This document shows positions 8,547 to 64,000 of a DNA stretch of 64,000 nucleotides, piece by piece; positions within the stretch are counted from its first letter, which is position 1, and each line of letters begins with the position of its first letter. A model generated the notes under the pieces. The model did no database searches. It worked only from the letters and a program-made list of their open reading frames with translations, and was not told the DNA's origin. The stretch is taken from the NCBI RefSeq assembly GCF_000240165.1, contig NC_017586.1, forward strand, positions 3,782,001 to 3,846,000. Direction: 5' to 3'. Origin of the DNA: Streptantibioticus cattleyicolor NRRL 8057 = DSM 46488. GTDB taxonomy: Bacteria > Actinomycetota > Actinomycetes > Streptomycetales > Streptomycetaceae. Position numbers and translations under genes: made by a program.

Positions 8547-9740
<1,194 letters not shown>

Positions 9741-11035: not shown

Positions 11036-11806
11036 TCAGGCGGGGAGCAGCCGGCCGGCGACGACCTCGGCCATGGCGGGCCGGTGCTCCTCGATGAAGA
11101 AGTGGCCGCCCGGGTAGACGTGCATGTCGAACTCGCCCTTGGTGTGCGCCGCCCAGCCGCGGGCCTCGGCGAGCGAGGTCTCCGGGTCGCGGTCGCCGGC
11201 CAGCACCGTGATCGGGCAGTCGACGGTGGCGTCGGGGCCGGCCAGGTAGCCGCCGGCCACCTGGTAGTCGGCCCGGATCACCGGGAGGAAGATGCGCAGC
11301 AGATCGGGGTTGTCGAGGATGGCGGCGTCGGTGCCGCTGAGCTTGCGCAGTTCGGCGACGACGTCCTCGTCGCCGGGGACGCGCTCCCACACCGCGGGCA
11401 GCCGTACCGTCGGGGCGCGGCGGGCCGAGCAGAACAGGGCGGCCGGGCGCAGGCCCTGCTCCCGTTCGAGCCGCCGGGCCACCTCGAAGGCGACCGCGGC
11501 CCCCATGCTGTGGCCGAAGAGCGCGAACCTCCCCGTCAGGTTGGTGTGCAGGACGGCGGCGACGGCGTCGGCCAGCTCCTCGACGCTGCGGGCGGGCGGC
11601 TCCCAACGGCGGTCCTGGCGCCCCGGGTACTGCACCGCGAGCACCTCGACGCCGGGCGAGAGCAGCTTGGAGAACGGGAAGTACGCGGAGGCCGAGCCGC
11701 CCGCGTGCGGAAAGCACACCAGGGTCGCGGCGGCCTCGGGGGCCGGGTGGAACCGGCGGATCCACACGTCGTAGTCGTCGTGGTGGTCGGTCAAGGCGGG
11801 GTCCAC
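11036..11806 (-). CDS. Type II (editing) thioesterase
   Basis: About 256-residue alpha/beta-hydrolase that removes stalled or wrong acyl groups from carrier proteins. The oxyanion motif [10 protein letters not shown], nucleophile elbow GHSMGA (Ser100), acid GDRD (Asp207) and His235 in PGGHFF are all present, and the length fits stand-alone type II thioesterases. The start is uncertain: GTG at 11806 has GGGAG almost touching it, and a TTG 12 bases further in would be better spaced from that site. It is probably co-transcribed with metK, 26 bp downstream. Its place beside a trans-AT PKS/NRPS system supports an editing role. Confidence 0.9.
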
Positions 11807-15164: not shown

Positions 15165-15199
15165 TACCCGGGGTGGCGGGTGCGGTGTGCAATGACCCG

Positions 15200-16427: not shown

Positions 16428-17312
16428 ATGGGATTCCGGGAAGTGCGCCTGGCGTTGCCGCAGATGGCGGTCGGCGGGCTCTCCGAGAATTGGCTCTTCA
16501 AGGAAATCGGCGATTTCCACTGGGAATTGCTGGCCGAGCACTTCGGGCGCCCGGTGACGGAGCTGACGGATCCGTCCGGCGACCGGGCGCTGCCGGTGTT
16601 CGTCCGTATCCGGGTGTCCGCCGGGCAGCCGCTGAGCGCGTTCCGCGAGGGCGACCGGCTCCGGCTGGCCGGTGAGCTGGCCCGGGTGGACGACGGCGCC
16701 TACGTCAGCGACGTGGAGTGCCGGAGCGGCGGCGCGGTGCTCACCGCCCGGCTGATGACGGTCTTCGCCAAGCCGGCCGCCGCCGGGGCGCTGGTGCCGG
16801 TCCGCCCGGCGGCCCCCGAGGGGACGGCGGTGCCGGCGGCCGACGCCGGACAGGCCGAATTCCACCGGGAGTTCATGGCGGCCCGGCGGGCGGACCCGGC
16901 CCGTCCGCTGCCGGACGGCGACGGCGGACCCGGCGGCGGCGAGCCGCTGTTCACCCACACCTACCGGCTCAACCCCTACTACGACCTCAACGGCGCCGGG
17001 CTGCTGTACTTCGCCTCCTACCCGCACATCCACGACCACTGCGAACGCCTCCACCTGCGGCGCGCGCTGGCCGCCGCGGGCGTGGCCGAGGGCACCGCGG
17101 AGTGGGCCAGGGCCGCCGCCACCGCCGAGCGGGACGTGGTCTACCTCGGCAACTGCGGCCCCGACGACGCGGTGGTCTTCCGGCTGGACGCCGCGCGGGC
17201 CGAGGGCACCCGGCTGCGGCTCACGGCGACGCTGCTGCGCGAGTCCGACGGCGCCCCGCTGGCCCGGGTCCGCACCGTCAAGGAGGTCACCGACCCGGCG
17301 GTCGCGGCGGCG
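16428..17312 (+). other. Domain: LnmK-like acyltransferase/decarboxylase fused as a loading domain
   Basis: The first roughly 295 residues resemble LnmK of leinamycin biosynthesis, a double-hotdog enzyme that loads methylmalonyl and decarboxylates it to propionyl on an ACP. The signature is GLSENWLFKEIGDFHWELL followed by PVFVRIRV and FREGDRLRL. Here it is fused directly to an ACP and KS at the start of the assembly line, which suggests a starter role giving propionyl, or acetyl if malonyl is used. There is no tyrosine in the first 91 residues, so the Tyr62 reported as catalytic in LnmK has no obvious counterpart. Confidence 0.7.
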
Positions 17313-20300
17313 CTGGCCGGCGCGGCACTGGACCGGGACACCGGCACCGCGGCCCCGGCGCCCGCGCCCCGTCCGGCACCGGAGGCACCACGGGCGGAGG
17401 ACGACGCGGACCCGGCGGCCGACGCGGCGCTCGCGGAGGCGCTGGCCCCCGTCATGGCCGACGCGCTCGGCGTGCCGCGCGACCGGCTCGACCACGGCAC
17501 CGACCTGCGCACCCTCGGGCTGGACAGCTTCTCCCTGACCGCCTTCGCCCAGCAGGCCGCCGAACGGCTGGAGCGTGAGGTGGACCCGTCCCGGCTCTTC
17601 CAGGCGTTCACGCTCGCCGACATCGCGCGGGTGGTGGCCGGCCGCCCGGCCCCGGGGACGCCACCCGCCGCGCCCCGCCCGGCAGTTGAGGACGCCGGGG
17701 ACGACGCCGAAGCGATCGCCGTGATCGGCATGGCCGGCCGCTTCCCGGGCGCCGACTCGGTGGCCGAGCTGTGGCGGGTCCTCGCCGAGGGGCGGGAGAC
17801 GGTCGGGGAGGTGCCGGCCGACCGCTGGGACACCGAGGCGCAGCGCCGGCTGCCGGACGCCCCCGTGCAGCGCGGCGGCTTCCTGCGCGACATCCGCCGC
17901 TTCGACCACGCCTTCTTCCGGATCTCCCGGCGGGAGGCCGAGCTGATCGACCCCCAGCAGCGGCTCTTCCTGGAGGTGGCCTGGGAGGCGTTCGAGGACG
18001 CCGGGCACGACGTGACCGCGTTGCGCGGCAGCCGCACCGGGGTGTTCGTCGGCGTCTGCCACAGCGACTACGCCGCCGTACTGCGCGACCGGCTCACCGG
18101 CACCGAGCCGCACCGGGCGGTCGCCACCTCGCCGTCGGTGGTCGCCAACCGGGTCAGCTACGCGTTCGGCTTCCACGGCGCCAGCGTGGCGGTGGACACC
18201 ATGTGCTCCTCCTCGCTGGTGGCGGTGGAGCAGGCGGTGAACGCGCTGCGGTCGGGCGGCTGCGAGCAGGCGCTGGTCGGCGGCGTCAACGTGATCTGCG
18301 ACCCCGGCCAGCACCAGGCGTACGCCAGGACCGGGGCGCTCAGCCCGGACGGCCGGTGCAAGACGTTCGACGAGAGCGCCGACGGCTACGCGCGCGCCGA
18401 AGGGGTCTGCGCGCTGGTGCTCAAGCCGCTGAGCAAGGCCCGCGCCGACGGCGACCGGGTCCACGCGGTGATCAAGGGCGTGGCCGTCAACCACGGCGGC
18501 CAGGCCCAGTCGCTGACCGCGCCCAACGCCGACGCCCAGGCCGAACTGCTCAAGCGGGCCTACCGCTCGGCCGGGATCGATCCGGCGACCGTGGGCTACC
18601 TGGAGGCGCACGGCACCGGCACCCGGCTCGGCGACCCGATCGAGGTCGCCGGGATCACCGCCGCCTTCACCGAGCTGTACCGGGAGCGCGACACGCCGCT
18701 GCCGGACGGGGCCGGCTGCGCGCTGGGGTCGGTCAAGACCAACATCGGCCACCTGGAGGCGGCGGCCGGCCTGGCCGGGATGATCAAGGTGCTGCTGGCG
18801 ATGGGCCACGGGGTGCTCCCGGCCACCCGCAACGTCGACCGGCTCAACCCGATGATCCGGCTGGACGGCACCCCGCTGCGCGTCCAGCGCGAGACGGCCC
18901 CGTGGCCGCGGCTGACCGACGCGTCGGGACGTCCGCTGCCGCGCCGGGCCGGCGTCAGCTCGTTCGGCATGGGCGGCACCAACGCCCATGTGGTGCTGGA
19001 GGAGTTCACCGAGGAGCCGGCGGCGTGGGCCGGGGCGGCGGACGGGCCGTGCGTGGTGCCGCTGTCCGCGCGGGACGCCGGTGCGCTGCGGGACGCGGTG
19101 CGCGCGCTGCTGGAGTTCCTGGCGGACGAGCCGGCCCCGTCGCTGCCGGAGATCGCGTACACCTTGCAGACCGGGCGGGCGGCGATGGCCGAACGCCTCG
19201 CGGTGGTCGCCGGTTCGGTGGCCGGGCTGCGGGAGCGGCTGCGGGCGTTCCTGGACGGATCGGCCGGGGAACCGGCGGACGACGGCGGCCTCGGCGAGGT
19301 GGCCCGGCGGTGGGCGGCCGGCGGCGAGGTGGAGTGGGCCGCGCTGTGGCCAGGGCGGCGCCCGCGTCCGGTGTCGCTGCCCACGTACCCGTTCCGCCGC
19401 GACCGGCACTGGGTGGGGGAGCGGGGCACCGGCGGCGGGGCGCGGGAGGCGTTCGTGGTGCCGAGGTGGCGTCCGTCGGCCGTGCCGCAGACCGCCGCGC
19501 CGGAGCCCGGGGCCTACCTGGTCCTGGTCAACGAGGCGTCCGAGGCGGCGGCGGACCGGCTCTTCGCCGGGGTGCCCGGGTGCCGGGCGCTGGTGGTGCG
19601 CGCCGACCGGATCCCCGGCGGACCGGAGGCGCTGGAGACCGTCCTGGCCGCGCACGGCGGGCTCGCCGCCGGGGAACGCCTGGCCGCGGTGGTCGACCTG
19701 GCCGACTGGTGGCCGGCCGGCGCCCCGGCCGCCGACACCTTCCGGCTCCGCTTCCCGCTGCTGCGCCAGGTGCTCGCCGGCCACCGGCTGCCCTCGCTGA
19801 CCGTGCTGCGGATCACCCGGGGGACGGTGCCCGGCGAGGCCGCGGGGCTGTACCGGGCGCTCCCCGCCGAACTGCGCACGGTGCGCGCCCGGACGGTCGA
19901 GGTCGACTTCGGCCCGGACCGGGCGGACCGGCTCGCCGCGGTGGCCGCCGCCGAACTCGCCGCCGACGACCGCCGGCCCCGGGTACGCCACCGCGCCGGG
20001 ACGCGCGAGTACGCGGCGCTGGACCTCCTGACCGCCGAGGAGACCGCCGCACCCGGCACCGCCACCGGCGGGCTGGACGCCATCGCCGCGGGCACCGTGG
20101 TGATCACCGGCGGCACCGGGGAGATCGGCCTGGCGCTCGCCACCGAACTCCACCGCCGCGGCGCCCGCCATCTGCTGCTGCTCGGCCGCACCCGGCTGCC
20201 CGCCCGCGCCAGGTGGGCGGCGCTCGCCGCCGACCCGGCCACCGAGCCCCGGCTGCGGCGGCGCCTGGCGGCCCTGGCCCGACTCGACGCGGCCGGAGCC

Positions 20301-22640
20301 TCGTTGGAGGTACGCGCCCACGCGCTGAGCGACGCGCCCTCGCTGCGCCGGCTGCTGACCGGCGCGGCGGAGCGGGGCGGAGCGCTCACCGCGGTCTTCC
20401 ACTGCGCCGGGGCGATGGCCGACAGCCGCTCGCTGCTGGCCAAGCCGGCCGACGAGGTGCGGCGGGTGCTCGACGCCAAGGTGCGCGGGGTCCGCACGCT
20501 GTGGGCGGCGCTGGCGGACCAGCCGCCGCTGGACCTGGTGCTCTTCTCCTCGGTCTCCGCCGCGGTGCCCCGGCTGGGCGCCTCCTACGCGGACTACGCG
20601 GCGGCCAACGCCTACCTGGACGACTTCGCCGCCGTCCACGACACGGACGGCGGCCACCGGGTGCGTTCCCTCCAGTGGCCGGTGTGGCGCGACACCGGGC
20701 TGGGCCGGGACCGCGGCGAGGCGGTGGCCGGGCTCGGCATCCCGGAGCTGCCGGTGGACGGCGCGCTGCGGCTGCTCGACGACGCGCTGCGGATCGGCGG
20801 CCACCCGGTGATGCTGCCGTGCCGGATCGAGCCGGACGCGGTCGACCTGGCCGAACTCTCCCGTTCCCCGCTGCCGCCCGCCGCCGCGCCGGTGCCGCCA
20901 CGGCCCCGTACCGAAGCGCCCCCCGCCGCCGTACCCGACGTCGGCCGGATCACCCGGGTCTTCGCCCGCACCCTGCGCACCACCGCCGACCAGCTGGCCG
21001 CCGACGTCTCCTTCGCCGACCTCGGCGTGGACTCGCTGCTCATGGCGGAACTGGTGCGGGAGCTGGAGGCCGACCTCGGCCGCCCGGTGGACCCCACGCT
21101 GCTCCAGGAGCACCCGACCATCGGCGAGCTGGCGGCCGAGCTGGCGCCCGAGGGGGCCGCGTCCGCCCCGGTGGCGGCGCCGGCGGCGGTCCCGGCCGCC
21201 GCGCCGGCGGTCCCCGGCGGCCCGGTGCCCGTCGCCGTCATCGGCATGGGGTGCCGCTTCCCCGGCGCCGCCTCGCCGGACGCGTTCTGGCGCGCCCTGG
21301 TACGCGGCGAGGACCACGTCACCGAGGTGCCGCCGGACCGCTGGGACGCCGCCGCGCTCTACTCGCCCGTACCGCAGCCGGGGCGCAGCATCAGCAAGTG
21401 GGGCGGGTTCATCGAGGACGCGGCCGACTTCGACCCGGCGTACTTCGGCTTCGACGGGGAGACCGCGCGCCACCTGGACCCGCTGGTGCGCAAGGCGCTG
21501 GAGGTGACCGCCGAGGCGCTGCTCGACGCCGGCTACCGGACCGAGGAGGTCAAGGGCCGCCGGGTCGGGGTCTACCTGGGCACCCGGACCGCCAACTACC
21601 GCGAGTACCTGCGCCCGCTGCCCCGGGAGGCCATCGTCGGGCTGGGCCAGAACTTCGTGGCCGCCCACGTCTCCCACCACTTCGACCTGACCGGCCCCAA
21701 CCTCGTGGTGGACAGCGCCTGTTCGTCCTCCCTGGTCGGCGTCCACCTGGCGTGCCAGAGCCTGGCGCTGGGCGAGTCGGAGATGGCGCTGGCCGGCGGG
21801 GTGGACCTGCTGCTGGACGAGGAGCCGTACCTGCTGCTGAGCCAGGGCAAGGCGCTGTCGCCCACCGGACGCTGCCGTACCTTCGACGAGGCCGCCGACG
21901 GCTTCGTGCCCGGCGAGGGCGCCGGGGTGCTGGTGCTCAAGCGGCTCGCCGACGCCGAACGCGACGGCGACCGGATTCTCGCCGTCATCGAATCGTCCGC
22001 GGTCAACAACGACGGCCGCACGATGGGGTACACCACGCCCAGCGCCCGCGCCCAGCGGGAGCTGATCCAGCGGGCGCTGGACGCCGCCCGGATCGACCCG
22101 CGCGGCATCGGCTACGTCGAGACGCACGGCACCGGCACGATGATCGGCGACCCGATCGAACTCCAGGCGCTCACCGCGGCGTACGCCCGGCACACCGCCG
22201 AGCGCGGGTTCTGCGGGGTGGGCAGCGTGAAGTCCAACATCGGCCACCTGCTGAGCGCGGCCGGGGTCGCCGGGCTGATGAAGGTGGTGCTCACCCTGCG
22301 CCACCAGCAGATCCCGCCGACGCTGCACTGCGCGCGGCCCAACCCGCGGTTCGCCTTCCCCGAGTCGCCGTTCCGCCCCGTCACCGAGCTGACGGACCTC
22401 ACCGCCGGGCCGGCGCTGGAGCGGGCCGCGGTCAGCTCGTTCGGCTTCGGCGGGACCAACGCCCATCTGATCGTGGCGCGCGGCACCGCCGGGACGGGGT
22501 CCGCCGCGTCCGTCCGGCAGCCGCTGCCGCCGCCGGTGTACCACCGGAAGCGCATCTGGGCGCTTCCCCGGCCCTCCCTGACCGACCGGCCCGCGGGCCG
22601 CTCGGCGCGGCTCGATCTGACATTCCTGCCAACCGGTTGA
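16428..22640 (+). CDS. Trans-AT PKS gene 1: LnmK-like loading domain, ACP, KS1-KR-ACP, KS2
   Basis: 2070 residues; starts the assembly line. Domains: LnmK-like double-hotdog domain (about 1-295); loading ACP with Ser367 in GLDSF; KS1 (about 428-860) with Cys593 in DTMCSSS, EAHGTGT and NIGH; the usual post-KS linker ending LPTYPFRRDRHW; KR with GGTGEIG and catalytic Tyr1390; ACP with Ser1536 in GVDSL; and KS2 (about 1600-2010) with Cys1765 in DSACSSS. There is no acyltransferase domain. KS2 ends the protein, and its DH-ACP-KR partners begin the next protein, so a module is split across two chains. KS2 has DPLVRKALE where most KS have DPQQRLFLE. The ATG at 16428 has GAAGGGG upstream. Gene 2 starts 23 bases after the stop codon, so one operon is likely. 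Confidence 0.92.
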   Translation: MGFREVRLALPQMAVGGLSENWLFKEIGDFHWELLAEHFGRPVTELTDPSGDRALPVFVRIRVSAGQPLSAFREGDRLRLAGELARVDDGAYVSDVECRSGGAVLTARLMTVFAKPAAAGALVPVRPAAPEGTAVPAADAGQAEFHREFMAARRADPARPLPDGDGGPGGGEPLFTHTYRLNPYYDLNGAGLLYFASYPHIHDHCERLHLRRALAAAGVAEGTAEWARAAATAERDVVYLGNCGPDDAVVFRLDAARAEGTRLRLTATLLRESDGAPLARVRTVKEVTDPAVAAALAGAALDRDTGTAAPAPAPRPAPEAPRAEDDADPAADAALAEALAPVMADALGVPRDRLDHGTDLRTLGLDSFSLTAFAQQAAERLEREVDPSRLFQAFTLADIARVVAGRPAPGTPPAAPRPAVEDAGDDAEAIAVIGMAGRFPGADSVAELWRVLAEGRETVGEVPADRWDTEAQRRLPDAPVQRGGFLRDIRRFDHAFFRISRREAELIDPQQRLFLEVAWEAFEDAGHDVTALRGSRTGVFVGVCHSDYAAVLRDRLTGTEPHRAVATSPSVVANRVSYAFGFHGASVAVDTMCSSSLVAVEQAVNALRSGGCEQALVGGVNVICDPGQHQAYARTGALSPDGRCKTFDESADGYARAEGVCALVLKPLSKARADGDRVHAVIKGVAVNHGGQAQSLTAPNADAQAELLKRAYRSAGIDPATVGYLEAHGTGTRLGDPIEVAGITAAFTELYRERDTPLPDGAGCALGSVKTNIGHLEAAAGLAGMIKVLLAMGHGVLPATRNVDRLNPMIRLDGTPLRVQRETAPWPRLTDASGRPLPRRAGVSSFGMGGTNAHVVLEEFTEEPAAWAGAADGPCVVPLSARDAGALRDAVRALLEFLADEPAPSLPEIAYTLQTGRAAMAERLAVVAGSVAGLRERLRAFLDGSAGEPADDGGLGEVARRWAAGGEVEWAALWPGRRPRPVSLPTYPFRRDRHWVGERGTGGGAREAFVVPRWRPSAVPQTAAPEPGAYLVLVNEASEAAADRLFAGVPGCRALVVRADRIPGGPEALETVLAAHGGLAAGERLAAVVDLADWWPAGAPAADTFRLRFPLLRQVLAGHRLPSLTVLRITRGTVPGEAAGLYRALPAELRTVRARTVEVDFGPDRADRLAAVAAAELAADDRRPRVRHRAGTREYAALDLLTAEETAAPGTATGGLDAIAAGTVVITGGTGEIGLALATELHRRGARHLLLLGRTRLPARARWAALAADPATEPRLRRRLAALARLDAAGASLEVRAHALSDAPSLRRLLTGAAERGGALTAVFHCAGAMADSRSLLAKPADEVRRVLDAKVRGVRTLWAALADQPPLDLVLFSSVSAAVPRLGASYADYAAANAYLDDFAAVHDTDGGHRVRSLQWPVWRDTGLGRDRGEAVAGLGIPELPVDGALRLLDDALRIGGHPVMLPCRIEPDAVDLAELSRSPLPPAAAPVPPRPRTEAPPAAVPDVGRITRVFARTLRTTADQLAADVSFADLGVDSLLMAELVRELEADLGRPVDPTLLQEHPTIGELAAELAPEGAASAPVAAPAAVPAAAPAVPGGPVPVAVIGMGCRFPGAASPDAFWRALVRGEDHVTEVPPDRWDAAALYSPVPQPGRSISKWGGFIEDAADFDPAYFGFDGETARHLDPLVRKALEVTAEALLDAGYRTEEVKGRRVGVYLGTRTANYREYLRPLPREAIVGLGQNFVAAHVSHHFDLTGPNLVVDSACSSSLVGVHLACQSLALGESEMALAGGVDLLLDEEPYLLLSQGKALSPTGRCRTFDEAADGFVPGEGAGVLVLKRLADAERDGDRILAVIESSAVNNDGRTMGYTTPSARAQRELIQRALDAARIDPRGIGYVETHGTGTMIGDPIELQALTAAYARHTAERGFCGVGSVKSNIGHLLSAAGVAGLMKVVLTLRHQQIPPTLHCARPNPRFAFPESPFRPVTELTDLTAGPALERAAVSSFGFGGTNAHLIVARGTAGTGSAASVRQPLPPPVYHRKRIWALPRPSLTDRPAGRSARLDLTFLPTG

Positions 22641-22663
22641 ACGTGGAACCAGGAAGAGACCCC

Positions 22664-36486
<13,823 letters not shown>

Positions 36487-36490
<4 letters not shown>

Positions 36491-41247: not shown

Positions 41248-41250
41248 ATG
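41235..41250 (+). promoter_or_regulatory. Ribosome site and start of gene 4 at a TAG-ATG junction
   Basis: AGAGGA at 41235-41240, seven bases before ATG 41248, lies inside the end of gene 3. The TAG stop (41245-41247) and the ATG are adjacent and in one frame. The good ribosome site supports real reinitiation rather than a sequencing error. Confidence 0.7.
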
Positions 41251-59200: not shown

Positions 59201-61413
59201 GGGAGGTCCCGGTGCTCGGCGCGGGCATCAGCGACTACGCGCTGGCCAACTCGTTCCTCGACCGCTTCGCCGCCTACCAGGCCGCCACCGGACGCGACTG
59301 CTTCCGGTCGTTGCAGTGGCCGAGCTGGCGGTCGATGGGCATGCCGGAGGTGACCACCGACGCCTATCTGGGCCTGGGGCTGCGCTCGTTGGCGACCCCG
59401 GCCGGGCTGCGGCTGCTGGACCGGGCGATGGCGGTGACCGGGCACCCGGTGCTGATGCCGGCCGTGGTGGACGCGGCCGGGTTCGACGCCGGCCGGCTGC
59501 TCACGGTGCCGGCGGCGCCCCGTACCGCGCAGCCGCCGAAGCCGGCCACGGCCACCGCTCCGGCACCGGCACCGGCACCGGCACCGGCACCGGACCCGGC
59601 CCCGGCTCCGCGCGGGGACGACGGCGCCCTGCTGGAGCGGCTCACCACGGTCTTCTCCCGGCAGTTGCGGCTGGCCGCCTCGGCGATCGACGCCGACGCC
59701 AACTTCGCCGACCTGGGCGTGGACTCCATCATGATCGCCCAGTTGCTGGTCGCGGTGGAGCGCGAGGCGGGGATCACCGTGGAGCCGTCCGCGTTCCTGG
59801 AGCACCCCACGATGCGCCGGCTCGCCGCCCATCTGCGCGACGAGGGCGCCACGGCGGCCCCGGCCGGGTCGGAAGGGCCCCCGGCGGCCGAGCAGACCAC
59901 CCCGGCCGGGGAGACCGCCCCCACCGGGGCGGACGAACCCGCGCCCGCCCCGACCGCCGGCGCACCCGGCGGTGACCGCATCGCCGTCATCGGCCTCGCC
60001 TGCCACTTCCCCGGCGCCCCCGACCAGGAGGCGTTCTGGCGCAACCTGGCGTCCGGCACCGACTCCGTCACCGAGGTGCCCGCCGGGCGCTGGGACGTCG
60101 CACGCCACTACGCCGCGACGTACCAGCCGGGCAAGAGCGTCAGCAAGTGGGGCGGGTTCCTGGACGCCGTCGAGGAGTTCGACCCCGGGCACTTCCGCAT
60201 CGAGGAGGACGCGGCGGCACAGGTCGATCCGCTGGTGCGGCAGTTCCTGGAGGTCAGCGCGGAGTGCCTGCGGGACGCGGGGATCGAGCGGGAGGAGATC
60301 GCCGGCCGCCGGGTCGGGGTCTTCGCCGGCGCCCGCACCTCCACCTTCGGCGCCCACCACACCGCGCCCGGCCGGGACAGCATCAGCGGCATGGCGCAGA
60401 ACTTCATCGCCGCCCACGTCGCCCACTTCCTCGACGTCCACGGCCCCAACATGGTGGTGGACTCGGCGTGTTCGTCCTCGCTGGTCGGCGTCCACCTGGC
60501 GGCGCAGAGCCTGCGGGCCGGGGAGTGCGAGATGGCGCTGGCCGGCGGGGTGGAGATCCTGCTGGACGAGATCCCGTTCGTGGGGATGAGCGAGGGGCGG
60601 GCGCTGTCGCCCACCGGCCGCTGCCACACCTTCGACGAGCGGGCCGACGGCATCGTGCTCGGCGAGGGCGCCGGCGTGCTGCTGCTCAAGCGGCTCGACG
60701 ACGCGCTGCGCGACGGCGACCGCGTCCACGCCGTCATCGAGGGCAGCGCGGTCAACAACGACGGCCGCACCATGGGCATCACCACCCCCAACCCGGACGC
60801 CCAGCGCGACGTGATCGCCCGCGCGCTGGACGCGGCCGGGGTGGACGCCGCCTCGATCTCCTACGTCGAGGCGCACGGCACCGGCACGATGATCGGCGAC
60901 CCGATGGAACTGCGGGCGCTGACCGATGTGTTCCGCCGCTCCACCGACGAGACCGGCTACTGCGGCGTGGGCAGCGTCAAGACCAACATCGGCCACCTGC
61001 TGAGCGCCGCCGGGATCGCCGGACTGATCAAGGTGATCCTCGCCATCCGCCACGGCCAGCTGCCGCCCACCCTGCACTGCGAGACGGTCAACCCCCGGTT
61101 CCGGTTCGAGGACTCGCCGCTGTATCCGGTGCGGGCGCTCCAGCAGTGGCCCGGCCGGGACGGGGTGCGCCGGGCGGGCGTCAGCTCGTTCGGCTTCGGC
61201 GGCACCAACGCCCACGTGGTGGTGCGCGACCTCGACCCGGCGGTGCGGGAACGGTTCCCCGCGCGCCGCGAGCCGCTGCCGCCGATCACGTACCGGCGCC
61301 GCCGCCACTGGTTCCCCGCCCCGGCCCCGGCGGACCCGGTCCAGGTCGTCGCCGACCCCGCCCCGGCCGCCGCCGACGAGCCGGTCACCCCCTTCCTTGA
61401 GCTGCGCTTTTAA
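41248..61413 (+). CDS. Trans-AT PKS gene 4: DH-KR-ACP, KS7-DH-KR-MT-ACP, KS8-ACP, KS9-KR-ACP, KS10-KR-ACP, KS11
   Basis: 6721 residues. Domains: KS6 linker (1-155); DH His197/Asp360; KR Tyr816; ACP Ser975; KS7 Cys1216; DH His1686/Asp1850; KR Tyr2296; C-methyltransferase with LEVGAGTGGT from residue 2605; ACP Ser2856; KS8 Cys3110 with an inactive ACP-like insert (Leu3444 for Ser); ACP Ser3718; KS9 Cys3955; KR Tyr4752 with altered tetrad; ACP Ser4916; KS10 Cys5165; KR Tyr5997; ACP Ser6160; KS11 Cys6408. No AT is present. Predicted outcome: CH=CH next to glycine, then a methyl-branched double bond, an unreduced unit (module 8), an uncertain beta-group (module 9), and a diene begun by the KS10 KR and the KS11/gene 5 module. 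KS11 shares the unusual DPLVRQFLE motif with KS2. The stretch 52080-52570 has many TTG and GGG codons, unlike its surroundings. Gene 5 starts 13 bases after the stop codon. Confidence 0.93.
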   Translation: MEQKQTTSARGDVLVLSASGPRQLAQYADAVARWITARPAEEPPAARRTLRRLTYTLQTGREEMRERLAVVVTSLPQAAERLAAFAADPDGGHGVLRGTVTARPDDGAADAADPAALAAHWVRGGTVDWSALHDGDRPARLSLPTPPYDARPYWVAEPDAVAGLSAPVGHPLAGAPDADGTAFSVTLTGAEFFLRDHAFGELKVLPAVAALEFAVVNAARTGRGPVRGVGDVMWSRPVVVAGEPVEVTLGLTATEEGADYEVRRGGEVCSAGRIGFGEPVPPVAGEDVLDLAAIRARCPRPVTGEECYALFDRLGGGYGPSFRPLRSLVCGDAEVLARIEAPEAVGLPPATFTLHPSVLDGMLQAALWTKADPDAVRERELPFALRELEVYGPPPAAGWAHAVPSAGGAGHDLTLTDDEGRVALRIRGLLTRAVGQGHALRPGQEPAAGTFAFEEVWSAAPVTAPAAVDGGTLVITAEPDPAALAPGAEVLAVTPGTGSGVTAGGRRVALEGAGDWAALFADLARDGRLPALVVWDGVTVPAADGPPEATALRLTALFQGWSAARTGRPVRLLHLYPETGGTDDAVAAALDGLARTIANEQPDFLACAVAVPPGPVAVRARAVAEESGAPEHEFAVRYRDSGRQVRRWRAVAGFGEGTVAAPEVRRDGTYLVTGGLGGLGRLLVGHLAAGAPGARFVLAGRSPLDAAGQAGLAALRETGAEVEYRVARLGEPGAAEELVTGVLADHGGLHGVWHLAGTTRDGFLLGKDPAELTEVLAPKVRGTLELDRATAGLPLDFFVLFSSMSGAAGSPGQADYAYANRFLDAFAARREELRRQGRRAGRTRSLLWSLWADGGIRMRMDAAAQERAAGQVGLRAFPAEVGLRALDAALGHDGDHLLLAHGDGEKLARLLESAARRPLPRATAPAAPAPRGPGAGDDLQARAEERLKEILAGAFGMPAEEIDPDTAFQEYGIDSILIMDLNRTLEEHFGPLPKTLFFEYRELRSLAGWFAGHHADRLAPPSPAATPAPVAVPAAAADPAPAPVPAPAPADEPVAIIGVSARFAGSDDLDAFWENLRAARDLITEIPADRWDWRDYDQATEADREAVYSRWGSFLERIDAFDPLFFGISPREAAILDPQERLFLQTAWHTLEDAGYTRAALHGSRVGVYVGAMYSLYQLYEADNGRIAASSYAAIANRVSYTMGFDGPSIAVDTMCSSTLSAIHLAIADLRSGQAEVALAGGVNLHVHPYKYRFLGQGRFTSSDGRCRSFGEGGDGYVPGEGVGAVLLKPLSKALADGDHVYATILGSGVNHGGRTNGFTVPNPTAQGELIGEAVRAAGIDLGSVSYVEAHGTGTALGDPVEIRGLTRAFEAASAAPGSVPIGSVKSNLGHLESAAGMAALCKVLVQLEHRTLVPSIHSEVLNPNIDWQTSPFRVQRELAEWRSPDGGPLRAGISSFGAGGANAHLVVEEHRAAPSRQGTGGRQLFPFSAKTPERLRELARRFAGFLTAHPGTDPAAVAYTLQTGREPLDDRLAVVATTTAELAAALAAFADGGPLPAGCHQGSARGTARERGARAAKDAVRSAAERRDVDTLAELWVGGGAPEWRLLHETVPGRIPLPGYPFETMRCWITDGDTPAHRRTGGAAPAGAPDGGHPLLGPVDAARTLDATLAFATVLTPGHPLIRDHQVHGTHLLPGVAALELAVAAAATAGLTHPCVLRDVRWLRPLTVTDGERRAWLEVRRDGAALGFALRGPDAAGETVFAEGTAEPLTGGAADAVVATGPIRDRCPNRHEGDRLYADFEAAGLGYGPGLRAVEWIAAGDGEALTRLVVPAAADPALTGCVLHPAVLDGALHTFAVLRDRTSGRAMVPYAVGAVEVLRPAPASGYAHVRACGPDRYEITLLDDDGRVCVRLREFALRPAPAAAAPDPAPAAGVDGMAFAPRWTPVTEPAAEATGAAGDTWIVHDDLAAPLARELAARCPGRALLLQAGDLQSPAGLADPATVWFVSGGPRPGARHDDARALEESQERGVLALFGLVKLLLERGLTSRPLRLTVVTEDVLAVPGHPVRDPFAGSLHGLAQSLAHECPNWRVTVLDRAGGEEPGAAAGRLSALAAAGGLLALRAGTAHRRRLVPVDATAAPARPIRHGGVYLVLGGAGGIGLELTDWLVRTFDARVVLVGRSALDGDRLARLRRIDADGSRVTYERADAGDPAQLAAVVGRITAAHGALHGAFHSTIVLRDQSLANMSEQTFRAALEAKTRTSVALAAAVAGVPLDFVMFFSSAVALSGSAGQSNYAAGSTFEDAFAHHLDAVLDARVRVVNWGYWGTVGIVAQDHYRERLARSGIFSITPAEGMAAVDHVLGHDERQVVVTKATRAVLEAAGVDFSGNDSSGNDFSGDRSGAAATPARPSAAFAAVDALAAEPPVDGLLPPAEEAELDRVLLDWLHLLFQQQGVFRDAAERWTEEALAARLGVLGKQRRLFAELLRVLTEGGRLRQDPDGAFATTARPAAADPEADLVALCDRTEALGHFDRLLRPCMHHLFPVMRGETRATDVMFPGGSTALVEGAYRGSPVVDRANVLVTSAVGRHLEHLRDQDPSRTLSVLEVGAGTGGTTASVLPAIARTGADVRYVYTDLSKAFLQHGRERFAERYPFLEFRTLDAGRDPAAQGFEPGGYDVVVAANVLHATDDLLRTLGNVKSLLRPGGWLVLNEASKNVVTATLTFGLLDGWWLNKDAHLRLPGSPLLSGDGWERVLAMAGFAHSRAVPADRGSAQCVVVAETTDAARPAPAPAPAPAAAPPASVPAPAATAPAPADDGDALRRAVEAYVKRAFHEVLEVPEDRLFPEVTFESFGIDSLTMPRVIDLLKPETGALPATLLFEYPTIGELVDHFVAEYGDVLRAALLPAPDETAPAPATAAAPVTAPVTAPVTVTAPAPVPVPAAAEHPGGWRKIAVIGVAGRYPMAADLEEFWANLRDGRDCVTEVPAGRWDWRHYTEVDGVKVSRWGGFLDGVDEFDPRFFQMTRTEAELTDPQERLFLQTAWHALEDAGYPRARLRGARVGVYVGVMYGQYQLYETASGLAGSMGYASIANRVSYAFDFQGPSLAVDTMCSSSLTSLHLACEALMLGDADYALAGGVNLAVHPRKYTQLAAGGFTSSDGRCRSFGDGGDGMVPGEGVGAVLLKPLEAAERDGDRILGVILGSAVNHGGKTGGFAVPNPVAQGNVIGQALQRAGAAAETLSYLEAHGTGTALGDPTEMAGLVRAVGRRAAGAPPIALGSLKSSVGHLESAAGIAAVTKVLLQLRHRELVPSLHAERLNPKIDWSDVPFRLQRTAAPWRSPDGGPLRAGVSAFGAGGSNAHLILEEYPRPAAPAPVADPGTARLFLLSARDEERLRASAARLHAFLTRNGGTGAAGSAALAAELAELAGVPGTTTDEPVADLGLDLLAVLRLVERVAERHGLDPDRAGPGVLHEEMTLGRIAALLAGSDAVTDPVDPDRLAWTLQVGREAMPERWALVATDTAELAAALGRFASGEPVPAARRGRAAADTWLRPAPRPVPTPVTRATLDDLAARWVEGTGFDWSALHPTRPRPLSLPGYPFARERCWIPALDLPVAGGSSSAGAGSRPGVGGLSSGEAGPRPVVTGGTPAGGPAAEAGSPPAAAGARGTAVASSVSRADGSGEPPASVGERVLALLAGLTGYGEAELDPGVTFHAHGLDSLSLIRFADQAAREFGVTVTPDMLLEAATPRALSELLWREYGVGAAEAPQARAEAVVERRDAADGADDPVVVVGMAGILPRSPDLDAFWTHVERGDDLITEVPADRWDWRAFHGDPSEGQDRTTVNRGGFMPGIDEFDPLFFGISPREAAWMDPRQRLLLRTVWSAIEDAGIDPGSLAGTRTGLFVGVGSAEYAELIQRSGVKADAYASTGLTPSMLANRISYQLDLRGPSEPVDTACSSSLVALHRGVEALQLGHCDTVIVGGVSVMLSPVTFSSLERAGMLAPDGVGRAFDKDASGYVRGEGVGAVVLKRRSAALADGDPIHAVLRGTAVNHGGRANSLTAPNPAAQAEVIVAAHQVAQVDPRTIGYVETHGTGTVIGDPAEVTGLRRAFGELYERWGLPAPERPHCALTALKNVIGHLEPAAGISALLRALLALRHRRIPGNPNVRELNGYLRLEGSPFHVPREAADWARPLGPDGRELPRRAGISSFGYGGVNAHVVLEEYTAEEPPAGPGPVVFTLSAKDPERLRAYARSFVEAAPAWRDDPAGTAYTLQAGRAAFAERLAFTAADGREAEAKLTAWLAGHAEGVFTGRVERGTRAPHVDAGESDPGTLAAAWVAGAEIDWRRLYAAVPRRRSLPAYPFAAERHWFPAGDAAPRSPQAAPVLPDDLALFVPEWRPAEVPAAGEARGTLLALCADDALAARLPAGTVVVRPGAGFRETEPGRAYEVDPGRAEDHLALVRALRAHGVRVARIAHLWPLAGAGFAERVTHGPEALYALLKAVLAVDAGALERVQVAVRETGAPALAEAWGAFAGSLRAIAPGTAFSAVRFAGAAADRALLAELAAGRLDAAVVRHDERGVRHVQRQRRLTAPEAGAGTRTPLRRHGVYLVTGGMGGLGLLLARTLATRHQARLLLTGRSPLDAAKEERLAELGRLGAEAEYRQTDVTDPVRTAEVVAEARGRWGRLDGVFHLAGTAGTRPLPDKELPEFRAQLRVRTEGARVLDEATRDEALDLFVLYSSTSGHLGDYGLVDYGFGARFLDGFAEEREALRRAGERRGRTVAVAWPMWRDGGMHVAADDEARYLAGTGLRYLETAEGERVLDLALSGGHPRLMAVPGDPERVERLVADAALGERDRPRPPRPATPPEPVAVPQAADDEAGLTLAVVRELRRMLSAVLGMDAGTLDADAGFGEYGLDSFGLKMLAQELGEAYAIDLATTTLFSANTIGKLAAHLVDEYGAELRAVHGTTPAPRAEPRPTSVPASVPAPEPAPAPASAAVPDDDAIAVVGMSGRFPGSPDLDAFWDHLAAGHDLIGEVPGERWDWREVAERFPGTPRWGGFLDDVDRFDPLFFKISPLEAEVMDPQHRLFLEETWKALEDAGCRADTLAGRPVSVFVGTQFTDYESMVLGGGEVNAYSGAGLARTMLANRISYLLDLRGPSESIDTACSSSLVAIHRAVRSLRSGESELAIAGGVSLVLSPQTVVSAHQLGVLSPDGRCKTLDRGANGYVKGEGVAALVLKPLARALADGDRVHGVIRGSAVNHGGHATSLTAPNPAAQADLLVAAYRDAKVPLETVSYLEMHGTGTELGDPVEVDAIRQAYRRLAGDRPGTPVGLGTVKSNIGHLEPAAGVAGVVKVLLAMAHRTLPATLHLERLNPLVRLDGTPFAPVLAARDWAPADASGAPLPRRAGVSSFGFGGVNAHVVLEEAPARPAEPAAGSATGRQVFVLSARDTERLREYAARTAALLDRNPDADLAGLAHTAQTGRVPMAVRLAAVVDDRAQLRDALAAFAASGEPGTLVTGTARDRDGGEHTWLAAPEGREYLRRIVREGDLEQVARLWVSGVDVDWDALRAGGPVRRAELPTYPFARERHWLPQATPATAGEREVLLAKSWRPDGAADEAGDPSAVLAAERLLVLTGPATEAPARAAFGADAVVVTVDEDQDADPEAGERIARRVLTDDARFTAVVDLVDADEPGDRVRESWARVVLAQELVARFRTAGLCYLHVTRGLTTFRAERPSLRGAAFAGLVRTLPAEYRGMRARTVDLDGAPLTADRLRRVVAVELAAPGTDTEACLRDGVRHLPVLEEVAAPTGSPTGSAADWRAGLAGRVVLITGGTGALGRAIAAELIDAGADRLVLMGRRPLPERSRWTETAADPGTDPELAARLRELLALERPGVRIEVVAGRLDDAQWLRGTLAAVRAEHGPIHGVVHAAGLGLTANPAFVGKRVAEMRTVLEPKVAGLRELSAACADDPLRFFVLCSSVSGEVPVLGAGISDYALANSFLDRFAAYQAATGRDCFRSLQWPSWRSMGMPEVTTDAYLGLGLRSLATPAGLRLLDRAMAVTGHPVLMPAVVDAAGFDAGRLLTVPAAPRTAQPPKPATATAPAPAPAPAPAPDPAPAPRGDDGALLERLTTVFSRQLRLAASAIDADANFADLGVDSIMIAQLLVAVEREAGITVEPSAFLEHPTMRRLAAHLRDEGATAAPAGSEGPPAAEQTTPAGETAPTGADEPAPAPTAGAPGGDRIAVIGLACHFPGAPDQEAFWRNLASGTDSVTEVPAGRWDVARHYAATYQPGKSVSKWGGFLDAVEEFDPGHFRIEEDAAAQVDPLVRQFLEVSAECLRDAGIEREEIAGRRVGVFAGARTSTFGAHHTAPGRDSISGMAQNFIAAHVAHFLDVHGPNMVVDSACSSSLVGVHLAAQSLRAGECEMALAGGVEILLDEIPFVGMSEGRALSPTGRCHTFDERADGIVLGEGAGVLLLKRLDDALRDGDRVHAVIEGSAVNNDGRTMGITTPNPDAQRDVIARALDAAGVDAASISYVEAHGTGTMIGDPMELRALTDVFRRSTDETGYCGVGSVKTNIGHLLSAAGIAGLIKVILAIRHGQLPPTLHCETVNPRFRFEDSPLYPVRALQQWPGRDGVRRAGVSSFGFGGTNAHVVVRDLDPAVRERFPARREPLPPITYRRRRHWFPAPAPADPVQVVADPAPAAADEPVTPFLELRF
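48400..48444 (+). repeat. Three 15-bp tandem units in the KR-MT linker
   Basis: Three consecutive 15-bp units encode DFSGN-DSSGN-DFSGD, a short flexible spacer between the KR and methyltransferase of the KS7 module. Probably replication slippage in a linker. Confidence 0.8.
51478..51705 (+). other. Domain: inactive ACP-like insert within the KS8 linker
   Basis: Between the KS8 core and its TLQVGREAMPERWALV linker part lies an ACP-like stretch with DLGLDLLAVLRLVE. The carrier Ser is replaced by Leu3444. It occupies the same place as the insert after KS3, and both KS are predicted to receive unsaturated chains. Confidence 0.65.
54390..55830 (+). other. Domain: ketoreductase of the KS9 module with altered catalytic tetrad
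   Basis: The NADPH-binding VTGGMGGLG, the SSTSG serine and Tyr4752 are present. The tetrad lysine is replaced by Arg4715, exactly 37 residues before the tyrosine as in the intact KRs, and the Asn position is Ala4756 (DYGFGARF instead of DYAYANRF). Other KRs here vary at the Asn position but keep the lysine. Activity is doubtful. Confidence 0.6.
59560..59593 (+). repeat. CCGGCA hexanucleotide tandem repeat in an interdomain linker
   Basis: Five copies plus a partial copy encode part of an Ala-Pro linker between the KS10-module KR and ACP. Ala-Pro linkers of this kind separate most carrier domains in this system; this one shows perfect repeat units. Confidence 0.85.
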
Positions 61414-61426
61414 AAGAGGACGAGTC

Positions 61427-64000
61427 GTGAGCAACGCAACGCAACGCCTGGACGGGCTGAAGTGCACCGTGCTGGTCCGCGCCACCGACCCGGTGATGCG
61501 CGACCACACGGTGCACGGCACGAGCATCCTCCCCGGGGTCTCGTTCCTCGATCTGATCCACCGGATCCTGCGGTCGAAGGGCGTGCCCACCGAGACGGCC
61601 GAGCTGCGGCGCATCCTGTTCAAGCAGGCGGTGGCCGCGGGCGAGGACTTCGACACCGAACTGCGGTTCCTGTTCACCGCCGAACCCGGCCGCCACCGCG
61701 TCACCGTGCGCGGCGTCCCGGTGTTCCGGGACGGCGGCCACGGCGAGCCGGCCGACGTGCTGGAGTGCGAACTCCACCTCGGCGAGGCGTTCCCGGTGCG
61801 CACCGTGGACCTGGCCGCGCTGCTTGCCCGGGCCACCCGCACCGCCGACATCGGCGAGCTGTACCGGCAGGTGCGGGCGGCCGGCATCGTGCACGGCGAG
61901 TTCATGCGCGGCCTGGGCACGCTGCACGTGGCCGACGGGGAACTCCTCGCCGACCTGTCGCTCAGCCGCCCGGCCCGCGCCTACCTGGACCACTTCGAAC
62001 TCCACCCGGCCTGCCTGGACTCGGCCACGCTGCTGCCGACCCAGTTCGCCGAGGAGGTCGCCCGTACCCTCGGGGAGACCGCGCCGGGGGACCGCAAGCC
62101 GTACATCCCCATCTACATCGAGTCGTTCCGGGCCCGGCGGCGGCTGGACGGCGACAACCGGGTGCACGCCCGGCCGCCCCGCTACGCCGGCCGCGACGCC
62201 GACCTCAACCGCTGCGACCTGGACTTCTACGACGCCGACGGCGTGCTCCAGATGTGGCTGCACGGCCTGACCTCCAAGCGGGTCCGGCGCAGCGCGCTGA
62301 TCACCCAGCTCACCAGCGTCGCCCCGGCCTCCGCCGAGGAACCCCCGGCGGTGACCGCCCCGGCCCCGGCCGCCGACGGCGACGCCGGCCCCGAGGGACT
62401 GCGGCGGCTGATCCGCGGGCTCCTCGCCGGCCACCTGGACACCACGGCCGACCAGGTCGACCCCGAACGCGGCTTCTACGAACTCGGCCTGGAATCCACC
62501 GCGTTGCTCGCCGTGGTCAAGGAGCTGGAGAACGCGCTCGGCGCCGAGCTGTACCCGACGCTGCTGTTCGAACACAACACGGTGGAAAGCCTCGCCGCCC
62601 ATCTGCACGACACCGTCGGCGCGACGCTCCCGGCCGCCCCGGCCCCCGTCCCCGCCGAGCCGGAAACCGGTGGCGCCGCCGCCCCCGACCTGCTCTTCCT
62701 CGCCGGACACTGGGAACCGGCGGACCCGCCCGCCCCGCACCCGGGGACGACCGGCGGGGTCCGCCTCGTCGTCGACCCGGCGGGACGGCTCGCCGGGGCG
62801 GACCACGCGCCCGGCACCGCCGTCACCGTCGGCCACGGCCCGGCGTTCGCCGAGGACGGCACCGGCGGGTACCGGCTCGACCCGGCCTCCCCGGACGACT
62901 GGCGGCGCCTGGTGGAACGGCTGGCCGAGGAGGACGCCGTCCCGGCCGAGGTGGTGTGGTGCCCCGCCGAGGTCACCGGCGACGGTGTGCTGGAGCGCGA
63001 GTTCACCGCGTTGCTGCACTTCGCCGCCGCCGTGCTGCGCCGCCCCGGCGGCCGGGTGCTGCGGCTGGTGTACTGCCTGCCGGTGCCGGACGGCGAGCGG
63101 GGGTTCACCCCGCTGGAGGCGCTGAGCGGCATGTTCAAGAGCCTGCGCCTGGAACACCCCGGGACGCGCTGCAAGCTGCTGCGGCTGGACGCGGTGGACG
63201 CCGGGGCGCTCCCCGGTGTGCTCGCCGAACTGGCCGACGACACGGCGGTCGACGTGGCCCACCGCGCCGGGCGCCGCCTGGTCCGCCGCTACCGGGAGAC
63301 CCCGGCGCCCACCGGGAAGCCGGTGGCCGCCCCCCGCGACGGCGGCGTCTACCTGATCACCGGCGGCCTCGGCGGGGTCGGCCTGGCCTTCGCCCGCCAC
63401 CTGGCCGCCCGCCACCGCGCCCGGCTCGTGCTGTGCGGACGCTCCCCGCTGGACGCCGAGGGCGAGCGGCGGATCGCCGAGCTGACCGCGCTCGGCGCCG
63501 AGGTGCTCCACCACCGCGCCGACGTCGCCGACGCCGCGCAGACCACCGCCCTGGCCGCCGCCGCCCGCCGCCGCTTCGGCCGGATCGACGGGATCGTGCA
63601 CGCCGCCGGGGTGCTGCGCGACGGCATGGCGGCCGGGAAGACGGCGGCCGACGCGGGCGCCGTCCTGGCCGCCAAGGTGGCCGGCACCGCCCACCTGGAC
63701 CGGGCCACCGCCGAAGACCGGCTCGACTTCTTCGTGCTGTGCTCGTCCACCGCCGCCGCCTGGGGCAACGCCGGGCAGACCGACTACGCCTGCGCCAACG
63801 CCTTCCTGGACGCCTTCGCGGCCGGCCGGGCCCGCGCGGTGGCCGCCGGGGAACGCCACGGCCACACCGTCTCCATCGGCTGGCCCGCCTGGCGGGACGG
63901 CGGCATGGGGCTCACCGACACCGCCGCCGCCGCGCTGCGCGCCATGGGCCTGGAACCGCTGGACGAGGCCACCGGGACCGCCGTGCTCCGCGCCGCGCTG
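61427..64000 (+). CDS. Trans-AT PKS gene 5 (3' end outside window): DH-ACP-KR
   Basis: The frame is open for 858 codons to the window edge. The DH-like domain (about 10-300) has HTVHGTSILPG with His27 and Asp198 in HPACLDSATLL; the Gln or His usually four residues after the Asp is not in its normal place. The ACP has Ser357 in GLESTALL. The KR has TGGLGGVG and Tyr787 in DYACANAFL. The order DH-ACP-KR and the sequence match the start of gene 2, and both genes follow a protein ending in a DPLVR-type KS, so this completes the KS11 module. The start is GTG 61427, with AGAGGA upstream. Confidence 0.9.
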   Translation, partial: MSNATQRLDGLKCTVLVRATDPVMRDHTVHGTSILPGVSFLDLIHRILRSKGVPTETAELRRILFKQAVAAGEDFDTELRFLFTAEPGRHRVTVRGVPVFRDGGHGEPADVLECELHLGEAFPVRTVDLAALLARATRTADIGELYRQVRAAGIVHGEFMRGLGTLHVADGELLADLSLSRPARAYLDHFELHPACLDSATLLPTQFAEEVARTLGETAPGDRKPYIPIYIESFRARRRLDGDNRVHARPPRYAGRDADLNRCDLDFYDADGVLQMWLHGLTSKRVRRSALITQLTSVAPASAEEPPAVTAPAPAADGDAGPEGLRRLIRGLLAGHLDTTADQVDPERGFYELGLESTALLAVVKELENALGAELYPTLLFEHNTVESLAAHLHDTVGATLPAAPAPVPAEPETGGAAAPDLLFLAGHWEPADPPAPHPGTTGGVRLVVDPAGRLAGADHAPGTAVTVGHGPAFAEDGTGGYRLDPASPDDWRRLVERLAEEDAVPAEVVWCPAEVTGDGVLEREFTALLHFAAAVLRRPGGRVLRLVYCLPVPDGERGFTPLEALSGMFKSLRLEHPGTRCKLLRLDAVDAGALPGVLAELADDTAVDVAHRAGRRLVRRYRETPAPTGKPVAAPRDGGVYLITGGLGGVGLAFARHLAARHRARLVLCGRSPLDAEGERRIAELTALGAEVLHHRADVADAAQTTALAAAARRRFGRIDGIVHAAGVLRDGMAAGKTAADAGAVLAAKVAGTAHLDRATAEDRLDFFVLCSSTAAAWGNAGQTDYACANAFLDAFAAGRARAVAAGERHGHTVSIGWPAWRDGGMGLTDTAAAALRAMGLEPLDEATGTAVLRAAL

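What the first reader, a model, noticed from the sequence alone, without database searches (positions are those of the whole stretch)
16428..64000. Module order matches a kirromycin-type elfamycin up to glycine and two units beyond
Before glycine: KR module plus split DH-ACP-KR module (a diene), KR+MT (gem-dimethyl carbinol), KR (hydroxyl), bare KS-ACP (ketone for the hemiketal; kirromycin uses ethylmalonyl here). Then glycine amide, DH-KR (CH=CH), DH-KR-MT (methyl-branched CH=C). This is the kirromycin order in seven ketide steps. KS10/KS11 with gene 5 then fits the later polyene. Modules 8 and 9 differ, so the product should be a variant.
Basis: partly seen in the sequence, partly recalled or inferred. 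Interest (0 to 1): 0.85.

Follow-up and report, generated by a model that had tools for sequence, protein, structure and literature searches.

The report
Elfamycin cluster without its pyridone end
A soil actinomycete carries, right beside the gene for the protein that such antibiotics attack, a gene cluster for a kirromycin-like antibiotic that seems to have lost the machinery for one end of the molecule, which makes it a real but not unheard-of relative of known antibiotics.

Summary
The module order is real and the elfamycin reading holds. All 13 intact ketosynthases of the line, inside and just beyond the window, group position by position with those of an inferred elfamycin (factumycin-type) cluster of Streptomyces globosus and of sister clusters; no outside trans-AT ketosynthase intrudes. 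Genes A-F are collinear with it at 44-59% identity.

Modules 8 and 9 are not variant: the reference has the same domains. Beyond 64000 there is no beta-alanine NRPS, aspartate decarboxylase or pyridone cyclase. The last module is a wreck: KS14 lacks its cysteine, AT13 and AT14 their serines, the final ACP is gone and an amidase gene follows. Streptomyces sp. NBRC 110611 and S. sulphureus share this; in all three the cluster fills the interval between tuf (EF-Tu, the elfamycin target) and rpsJ. EF-Tu there carries Thr375, a kirromycin-resistance residue; 2 of 60 family EF-Tus have it.

Best reading: a pyridone-less elfamycin, released as a polyene acid, with target-based self-resistance. Pyridone-less elfamycins and EF-Tu-linked clusters are already published.

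The parts
8547..9740 (+). tuf, EF-Tu; Thr at the position of E. coli Ala375; directly upstream of the cluster
   Evidence: the gene on the far side of the cluster is rpsJ at 90643 (Pfam Ribosomal_S10)
9846..11009 (-). S-adenosylmethionine synthetase (metK)
   Evidence: Pfam
11036..11806 (-). stand-alone thioesterase (type II by position); 63% in NBRC 110611, 59% in S. sulphureus, 58% in S. xiaopingdaonensis
12114..14867 (-). LAL-type LuxR regulator (AAA_16 + GerE)
15188..16090 (+). Sfp-type phosphopantetheinyl transferase (exact start not settled); 53-54% in the sister clusters, no match to the S. globosus one at 1e-5
   Evidence: Pfam ACPS
16428..22640 (+). PKS A (KirAI-like): LnmK-family loader-ACP-KS1-KR-ACP-KS2
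   Evidence: TIGR04098 187.6 bits, cut-off 100; 53% to S. globosus A
22661..36490 (+). PKS B (KirAII-like): DH-ACP-KR, KS3-KR-MT-ACP, KS4-KR-ACP, KS5-ACP
   Evidence: 53% to S. globosus B
25370..30352 (+). module 3, KS3-KR-MT-ACP (gem-dimethyl carbinol predicted)
34073..36343 (+). module 5, bare KS5-ACP (ketone for the hemiketal ring predicted)
36487..41247 (+). NRPS-PKS C (KirAIII-like): C-A(Gly inferred)-PCP-KS6
   Evidence: 59% to S. globosus C, 74% NBRC 110611, 67% S. sulphureus
41248..61413 (+). PKS D (KirAIV-like): DH-KR-ACP, KS7-DH-KR-MT-ACP, KS8-ACP, KS9-KR-ACP, KS10-KR-ACP, KS11
61397..64000 (+). PKS E (KirAV-like), first part: DH-ACP-KR; continues past the window with KS12-DH-KR-ACP to about 68933 across a frameshift near 67203

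Best explanation
The window holds most of an elfamycin assembly line of the pyridone-less kind. Shown by sequence: an LnmK-family loader, trans-AT modules 1-5, a C-A-PCP module, the modules of KS6-KS13 and KirC-type trans-ATs, all but the loader's family name with best matches in an elfamycin-type PKS cluster. Inferred chemistry: acetyl starter, diene, gem-dimethyl carbinol, hemiketal ring (ethylmalonyl supplied by the KirCII-type AT), glycine amide, methyl-branched diene, furan ring closed by the KirOII-type P450 with O-methylation, then a triene. In kirromycin the module of KS14 would next add a keto group and an NRPS would add beta-alanine for Dieckmann closure to the pyridone. Here that module is dead and the beta-alanine and cyclase genes are missing, so the chain should leave from ACP13 as a polyene acid. 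The release enzyme is a guess: the stand-alone thioesterase or the conserved amidase next to gene F. The cis-AT of module 13 is dead too, so a trans-AT must load ACP13. Self-protection is inferred to come from EF-Tu with Thr375.
For: Position-by-position KS clades, 13 of 13, support at least 0.952. Collinear A-F and matched tailoring genes. Loss of active sites in KS14, AT13 and AT14 and of the final ACP, with differing substitutions in three genomes. Faster divergence of the relic domains (KS14 44-51% with many gaps, against 76-80% for KS13). No panD, cyclase or second NRPS in the tuf-rpsJ interval; no KirHI homologue in this genome or in NBRC 110611, S. sulphureus, S. xiaopingdaonensis and S. 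netropsis, but one in 10 of 14 loader-bearing genomes, which also serves as the positive control. Cluster between tuf and rpsJ in three genomes. Thr375 in the cluster-side EF-Tu of this genome and in the EF-Tu of the three sister genomes, against 2 of 60 in the family (Fisher p 2.4e-5).
Against: No compound is shown. Gene E is frameshifted in this assembly at a run of seven C, so the line may not be functional here. Six of the eight cluster-bearing genomes with Thr375 share one clade of the EF-Tu tree, so 4 of 4 is not four independent events, and two family genomes have it although one search found no such loader in them. Seven of 15 loader-bearing genomes have Ala375. The tuf-rpsJ interval is variable in the family (0.5 to over 20 kb in 18 genomes), so the position could be an insertion hot spot. 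The phosphopantetheinyl transferase shows no match to that of S. globosus at 1e-5, and the MFS pump only 28%. A beta-alanine NRPS elsewhere in the genome was not searched for.
Confidence: 0.72

Rival explanations
1. The cluster is a decaying relic in this strain and makes nothing: gene E is broken and the last module is dead.
For: Frameshift in gene E in the window genome, while E is one open frame in NBRC 110611 and S. sulphureus; dead KS14, AT13, AT14.
Against: The dead module is shared by three genomes whose relic stretches are only 40-57% alike, so it looks old and was tolerated long, and it is not a sign of recent decay in this strain. The frameshift lies in a homopolymer, a usual place for an assembly error. 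All 13 other KS keep the catalytic Cys.
Confidence: 0.2
2. A full pyridone elfamycin is made, with the missing NRPS and cyclase supplied from elsewhere in the genome or by unrelated enzymes.
For: The rest of the line matches a pyridone-type elfamycin synthase throughout.
Against: No KirHI homologue in the genome; the extension that gives the required beta-keto group (KS14) is dead; NRPS, panD and cyclase are missing together while shared functions are kept.
Confidence: 0.05
3. The cluster's place beside tuf has nothing to do with self-resistance; it is a neutral insertion into a variable interval and Thr375 is lineage background.
For: The interval varies from 0.5 to over 20 kb in 18 family genomes. 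Thr375 is shared with S. klenkii, S. roseoverticillatus, S. netropsis and S. kronopolitis, whose clusters lie on other contigs than tuf, and occurs in two genomes of the background sample.
Against: The S. sulphureus and S. xiaopingdaonensis pair carries Thr375 in a part of the EF-Tu tree whose neighbours have Ala. The window cluster has no facT-like pump and none was found in the NBRC 110611 and S. sulphureus stretches beyond 33%, while 7 of the 10 cyclase-bearing loci carry one at 79-93% within the DNA held. A review reports EF-Tu resistance genes inside three such clusters.
Confidence: 0.3

Closest known systems
Factumycin/kirromycin-type elfamycin cluster (Streptomyces globosus LZH-48 plasmid NZ_CP030864.1, product inferred; kirromycin of S. 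collinus and aurodox of S. goldiniensis from papers)
   Same: Six PKS genes in the same order, same loader, split modules, glycine module, KirCI- and KirCII-type ATs, KirM- and KirOII-like enzymes, TetR
   Different: S. globosus has intact AT13, KS14, AT14 and final ACP, a further NRPS, panD, a KirHI-type cyclase, a facT-like pump and ccr; the window cluster has none of these and has an amidase, a LAL regulator and a thioesterase; the S. globosus cluster lies on a plasmid
L-681217 cluster of Streptomyces cattleya (pyridone-less elfamycin)
   Same: No Dieckmann cyclase; no pyridone (passage of a review, PMC4979870)
   Different: The review gives it a conventional TE domain; Pfam found none in gene F. 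I could not compare sequences
Phenelfamycin cluster (Yarlagadda et al. 2020, seen only through passages of the review PMC8625390)
   Same: Found through EF-Tu A375T, with EF-Tu resistance genes inside three clusters, one of them from a phenelfamycin producer
   Different: Phenelfamycins are recalled as glycosylated; the sugar genes and glycosyltransferase seen in the S. sulphureus sister cluster have no match in the window cluster. Not compared by sequence

Membership tests
Elfamycin polyketide synthase (KirAI-AVI type) | KS domains that group by position with those of an elfamycin synthase | tested here: met
   13 of 13 KS positions; the yardstick is the S. globosus cluster, whose product is inferred
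Elfamycin polyketide synthase (KirAI-AVI type) | Collinear module order with split DH-ACP-KR modules and an internal glycine NRPS module | tested here: met
   glycine specificity inferred
Elfamycin polyketide synthase (KirAI-AVI type) | Discrete KirCI- and KirCII-type acyltransferases | tested here: met
   58% and 49% to the S. globosus proteins; at 79308-82613 and 83631-85598, beyond the window
Pyridone elfamycin (kirromycin, aurodox, factumycin) | Beta-alanine NRPS (KirB) and aspartate decarboxylase (KirD) in the cluster | tested here: not met
   tblastn of the S. globosus proteins against the tuf-rpsJ interval: panD no match at 1e-5, NRPS only the glycine module at 33%; same picture in NBRC 110611 and S. 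sulphureus
Pyridone elfamycin (kirromycin, aurodox, factumycin) | KirHI-type Dieckmann cyclase | tested here: not met
   0 matches in the genome; the same query matched 10 of 14 loader-bearing genomes
Pyridone elfamycin (kirromycin, aurodox, factumycin) | Working last extension module | tested here: not met
   KS14 and AT14 without catalytic residues, no ACP
Pyridone-less elfamycin (L-681217, phenelfamycin) | No Dieckmann cyclase | tested here: met
Pyridone-less elfamycin (L-681217, phenelfamycin) | Terminal TE domain on the PKS (reported for L-681217) | tested here: not met
   No TE in gene F; a separate thioesterase lies at 11036-11806
Pyridone-less elfamycin (L-681217, phenelfamycin) | Product is an elfamycin acid acting on EF-Tu | not testable with these tools
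   needs chemistry and an EF-Tu assay

The most novel reading that the evidence does not exclude
A separate lineage of elfamycin clusters has settled in the ribosomal-protein region between tuf and rpsJ, gave up the pyridone by killing its last module and both cis-ATs (so that the hybrid line became entirely trans-AT), and replaced Dieckmann release by a new release step that uses the amidase encoded next to the dead module. The window strain would make a member without sugars.
Probability: 0.3. Interest if true: 0.62.

Novelty: new member of a known kind. Interest (0 to 1): 0.46.

Why it matters
If right, four genomes (three with the tuf linkage seen, one placed by gene order) offer a natural experiment on how an assembly line loses one end of its product, and a set of EF-Tu inhibitors whose self-resistance gene sits beside the cluster. 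The amidase as a possible off-loading enzyme is directly testable. Pyridone-less elfamycins and EF-Tu-linked clusters as such are already in print.

Tried and rejected
Modules 8 and 9 as the variant part: rejected, because the reference has the same domains. An S. netropsis cluster as a second pyridone-less type: it lacks the cyclase, but its gene E stops after KS12 and no gene F was found in the 120 kb held, so it looks truncated and was set aside. Thr375 as a mark of this subgroup alone: rejected, because 8 of 15 cluster-bearing genomes carry it, four of them with clusters on other contigs than tuf. The idea that the tuf-rpsJ position is in itself telling: weakened.

The loader scan used two exact peptide patterns and returned 14 loci; S. 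collinus, S. cattleya and the window's own genome were not among them, so it is not a census. The paper on the phenelfamycin cluster is not held. Searches for print on elfamycins and pyridone-less members. Multi-genome searches with long PKS queries gave no usable answer.

Rows dropped before counts: three second EF-Tu copies in G006, G020 and G049 and the window's own two copies were left out of the 60 background EF-Tus; KS fragments under 90% of the profile were left out of the tree, which removes the relic KS14 domains.

Full report
What is there. The window is C2:3782001-3846000 of an 8.1 Mb genome in two contigs. The genome is in the same family as G180, whose contig length equals that of an S. 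netropsis record, so it is read as Streptomycetaceae; no other species of its genus was among the 100 relatives searched. I took 60 kb downstream and 20 kb upstream. The left end is core genome: rpoC, rpsL, rpsG, fusA and tuf, then the biosynthetic cluster, then rpsJ at 90643 (Pfam). Coordinates above 64000 continue the window numbering.

Cluster content. After tuf: metK, a thioesterase and a LAL regulator on the minus strand, a phosphopantetheinyl transferase, PKS/NRPS genes A-F (16428-76568), an amidase (76565-78019), a P450 (minus, 78081-79304), an AT-AT-ER protein (minus, 79308-82613), a methyltransferase (minus, 82568-83536), an AT with what looks by eye like a KS remnant at its N-terminus (minus, 83631-85598), a second P450 (86510-87841), a TetR regulator and an MFS pump.

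The observation. The loader is a member of the LnmK acyltransferase/decarboxylase family (TIGR04098, 187.6 bits against a cut-off of 100); it is shared with S. globosus (50% identity) and S. netropsis (49%).

Is it an elfamycin synthase? A tblastn of gene C against 72,556 plasmid records gave one record with 80% or more coverage, a plasmid of S. globosus. That cluster has a pump that a resistance-gene predictor calls facT at 97.5%, ccr, panD, two P450s, a further NRPS and a gene that I read as the KirHI-type cyclase, so it serves as the reference; its product is inferred, not shown. Best alignments of window genes to it: A 53%, B 53%, C 59%, D 58% and 56%, E 50% and 47% (two pieces), F 57% and 44%; AT-AT-ER 58%, P450 58%, methyltransferase 54%, AT 49%, TetR 56%. 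The phosphopantetheinyl transferase has no match to that of S. globosus at 1e-5, and the pump matches facT at only 28%. A tree of 130 KS domains (13 window, 14 S. globosus, 13 NBRC 110611, 13 S. sulphureus, 12 S. netropsis, 65 from 11 other trans-AT loci) puts each of the 13 window KS in a clade with the same-position KS of the other elfamycin-type clusters and nothing else, support 0.952-1.0; S. netropsis contributes to positions 1-12 only. An independent check on the loader scan: it returned Saccharopolyspora sp. NFXS83, whose cluster a paper reports as kirromycin-like with 61% to KirAIII (passages of PMC10145562).

Modules 8 and 9 have the same domains in the reference and in the two sister clusters. 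The variant part is the end of the line. In S. globosus gene F is 3100 residues, with intact AT13, KS14, AT14 and a last ACP; here it is 2518 residues. In the window, NBRC 110611 and S. sulphureus the AT13 and AT14 serine motifs and the KS14 cysteine are gone, with differing replacements, and the last ACP is missing. The relic KS14, AT13 and AT14 stretches are 43-51% alike between the three where KS13 is 76-80% alike, as expected after loss of function. The pyridone branch is missing with it: in the tuf-rpsJ interval panD and the cyclase have no match at 1e-5 and the S. globosus NRPS matches only the glycine module at 33%; no KirHI homologue in the genome. The KirHI query found its target in 10 of 14 genomes with this loader and not in NBRC 110611, S. 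sulphureus, S. xiaopingdaonensis and S. netropsis.

A sister group beside tuf. In NBRC 110611 and S. sulphureus the same genes fill the space between tuf and rpsJ: 81 kb in the window, 83 and 90 kb in the others. S. xiaopingdaonensis has the same thioesterase-LAL-PPTase-gene A order on a short contig, with tuf on another contig. In all 10 cyclase-bearing genomes tuf lies on another contig than the cyclase. Of the cluster genes compared the amidase is the best conserved towards S. sulphureus (69%) and second only to one P450 towards NBRC 110611 (80% against 81%). The sister clusters differ in decoration: S. sulphureus has a glycosyltransferase, two genes of the dTDP-sugar type, a further epimerase-family gene, a phytanoyl-CoA dioxygenase, a P450 and an aldo-keto reductase; NBRC 110611 has a membrane acyltransferase, a further P450 and ccr. 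None of these has a match at 1e-5 in the window cluster except the P450s, at 32-39% to its own two; ccr was tested with the S. globosus protein.

EF-Tu. Numbered on an E. coli EF-Tu, position 375 is Thr in both EF-Tus of the window genome and in the three sister genomes; in a sample of 60 family EF-Tus it is Ala in 58 and Thr in 2. Of 15 genomes with a loader-bearing cluster, 8 have Thr (Fisher p 1.4e-5; 4 of 4 against 2 of 60, p 2.4e-5). A tree built without that codon shows six of the eight in one clade and the S. sulphureus pair apart from it, so the p-values overstate the case. A375T as a kirromycin-resistance mutation (in Salmonella) is in PMC5485169 (passages). A review (PMC8625390, passages) reports that a search with A375T EF-Tu found such genes inside three Streptomyces clusters, one of a phenelfamycin producer. 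The other resistance positions I checked (recalled: 120, 124, 160, 316, 329, 378) are as in E. coli.

How it likely works. Shown: the domains, their order, the dead sites and the gene set. Inferred from kirromycin work (PMC5818483, sections 3, 14, 17; PMC9361827, section 4 part 1 and section 9): the chemistry of each step, the furan ring by the KirOII-type P450 (closest solved relative EryF; the paper names EryF as the closest characterised homologue of KirOII) and O-methylation by the KirM-like enzyme. Since AT13 is dead, ACP13 must be loaded in trans; which extender it gets is open. Release as a free acid follows from the missing last module and NRPS; which enzyme does it is a guess between thioesterase and amidase.

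Novelty. A review states that the pyridone-less elfamycin L-681217 has a cluster without Dieckmann cyclase but with a TE domain (PMC4979870, passage). So pyridone-less elfamycins are a known kind. The lack of a TE domain, the relic module and the amidase may set this group apart, or may be what the phenelfamycin cluster looks like; the paper that would tell is not held.

Noticed in passing
window numbering about 67203-67209 (L001 3203-3209): Gene E changes frame at a run of seven C; the sister genes in NBRC 110611 and S. sulphureus are single open frames.
   Followed up: partly
window numbering 67344-68180 and the matching part of 71472-73840 (L001): The KR domains of modules 12 and 13 are nearly identical in DNA (97-100% in five of the 120-base steps, one exact run of 309 bases) although the flanks are 53-68% alike: recent gene conversion or an assembly effect.
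   Followed up: partly
KS1, KS3, KS7, KS8, KS12 of the window line: These KS domains have Met instead of Ala before the catalytic Cys (DTMCSS); the same positions show Met or Leu in S. globosus, NBRC 110611 and S. sulphureus.
   Followed up: no
83631-85598 (minus, beyond the window): The KirCII-type stand-alone AT carries about 200 residues that look by eye like a shrunken KS at its N-terminus, as if it came from a cis-AT module; the motif GHSMG is kept.
   Followed up: no
G000:C2:3354520-3355704: A second EF-Tu gene, 93% identical to the one beside the cluster, also with Thr375.
   Followed up: partly
G000:C2:5236872, 3433735, 137257, 6187502: Four crotonyl-CoA carboxylase/reductase homologues (83, 82, 75 and 55%), a possible source of ethylmalonyl-CoA.
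   Followed up: no
S. netropsis, G180:C2 about 161300-215200 (L019-L022): An elfamycin-type line 72-87% like S. globosus that stops after KS12 and lacks gene F and the cyclase: apparently a truncated cluster.
   Followed up: partly
tuf-rpsJ interval in 18 family genomes (L151-L168): Its length is about 0.5 kb in 5, 3 to 19 kb in 12 and over 20 kb in 1, so it is a variable site between two conserved genes; none of the 18 stretches matched the cluster genes listed in that script.
   Followed up: partly
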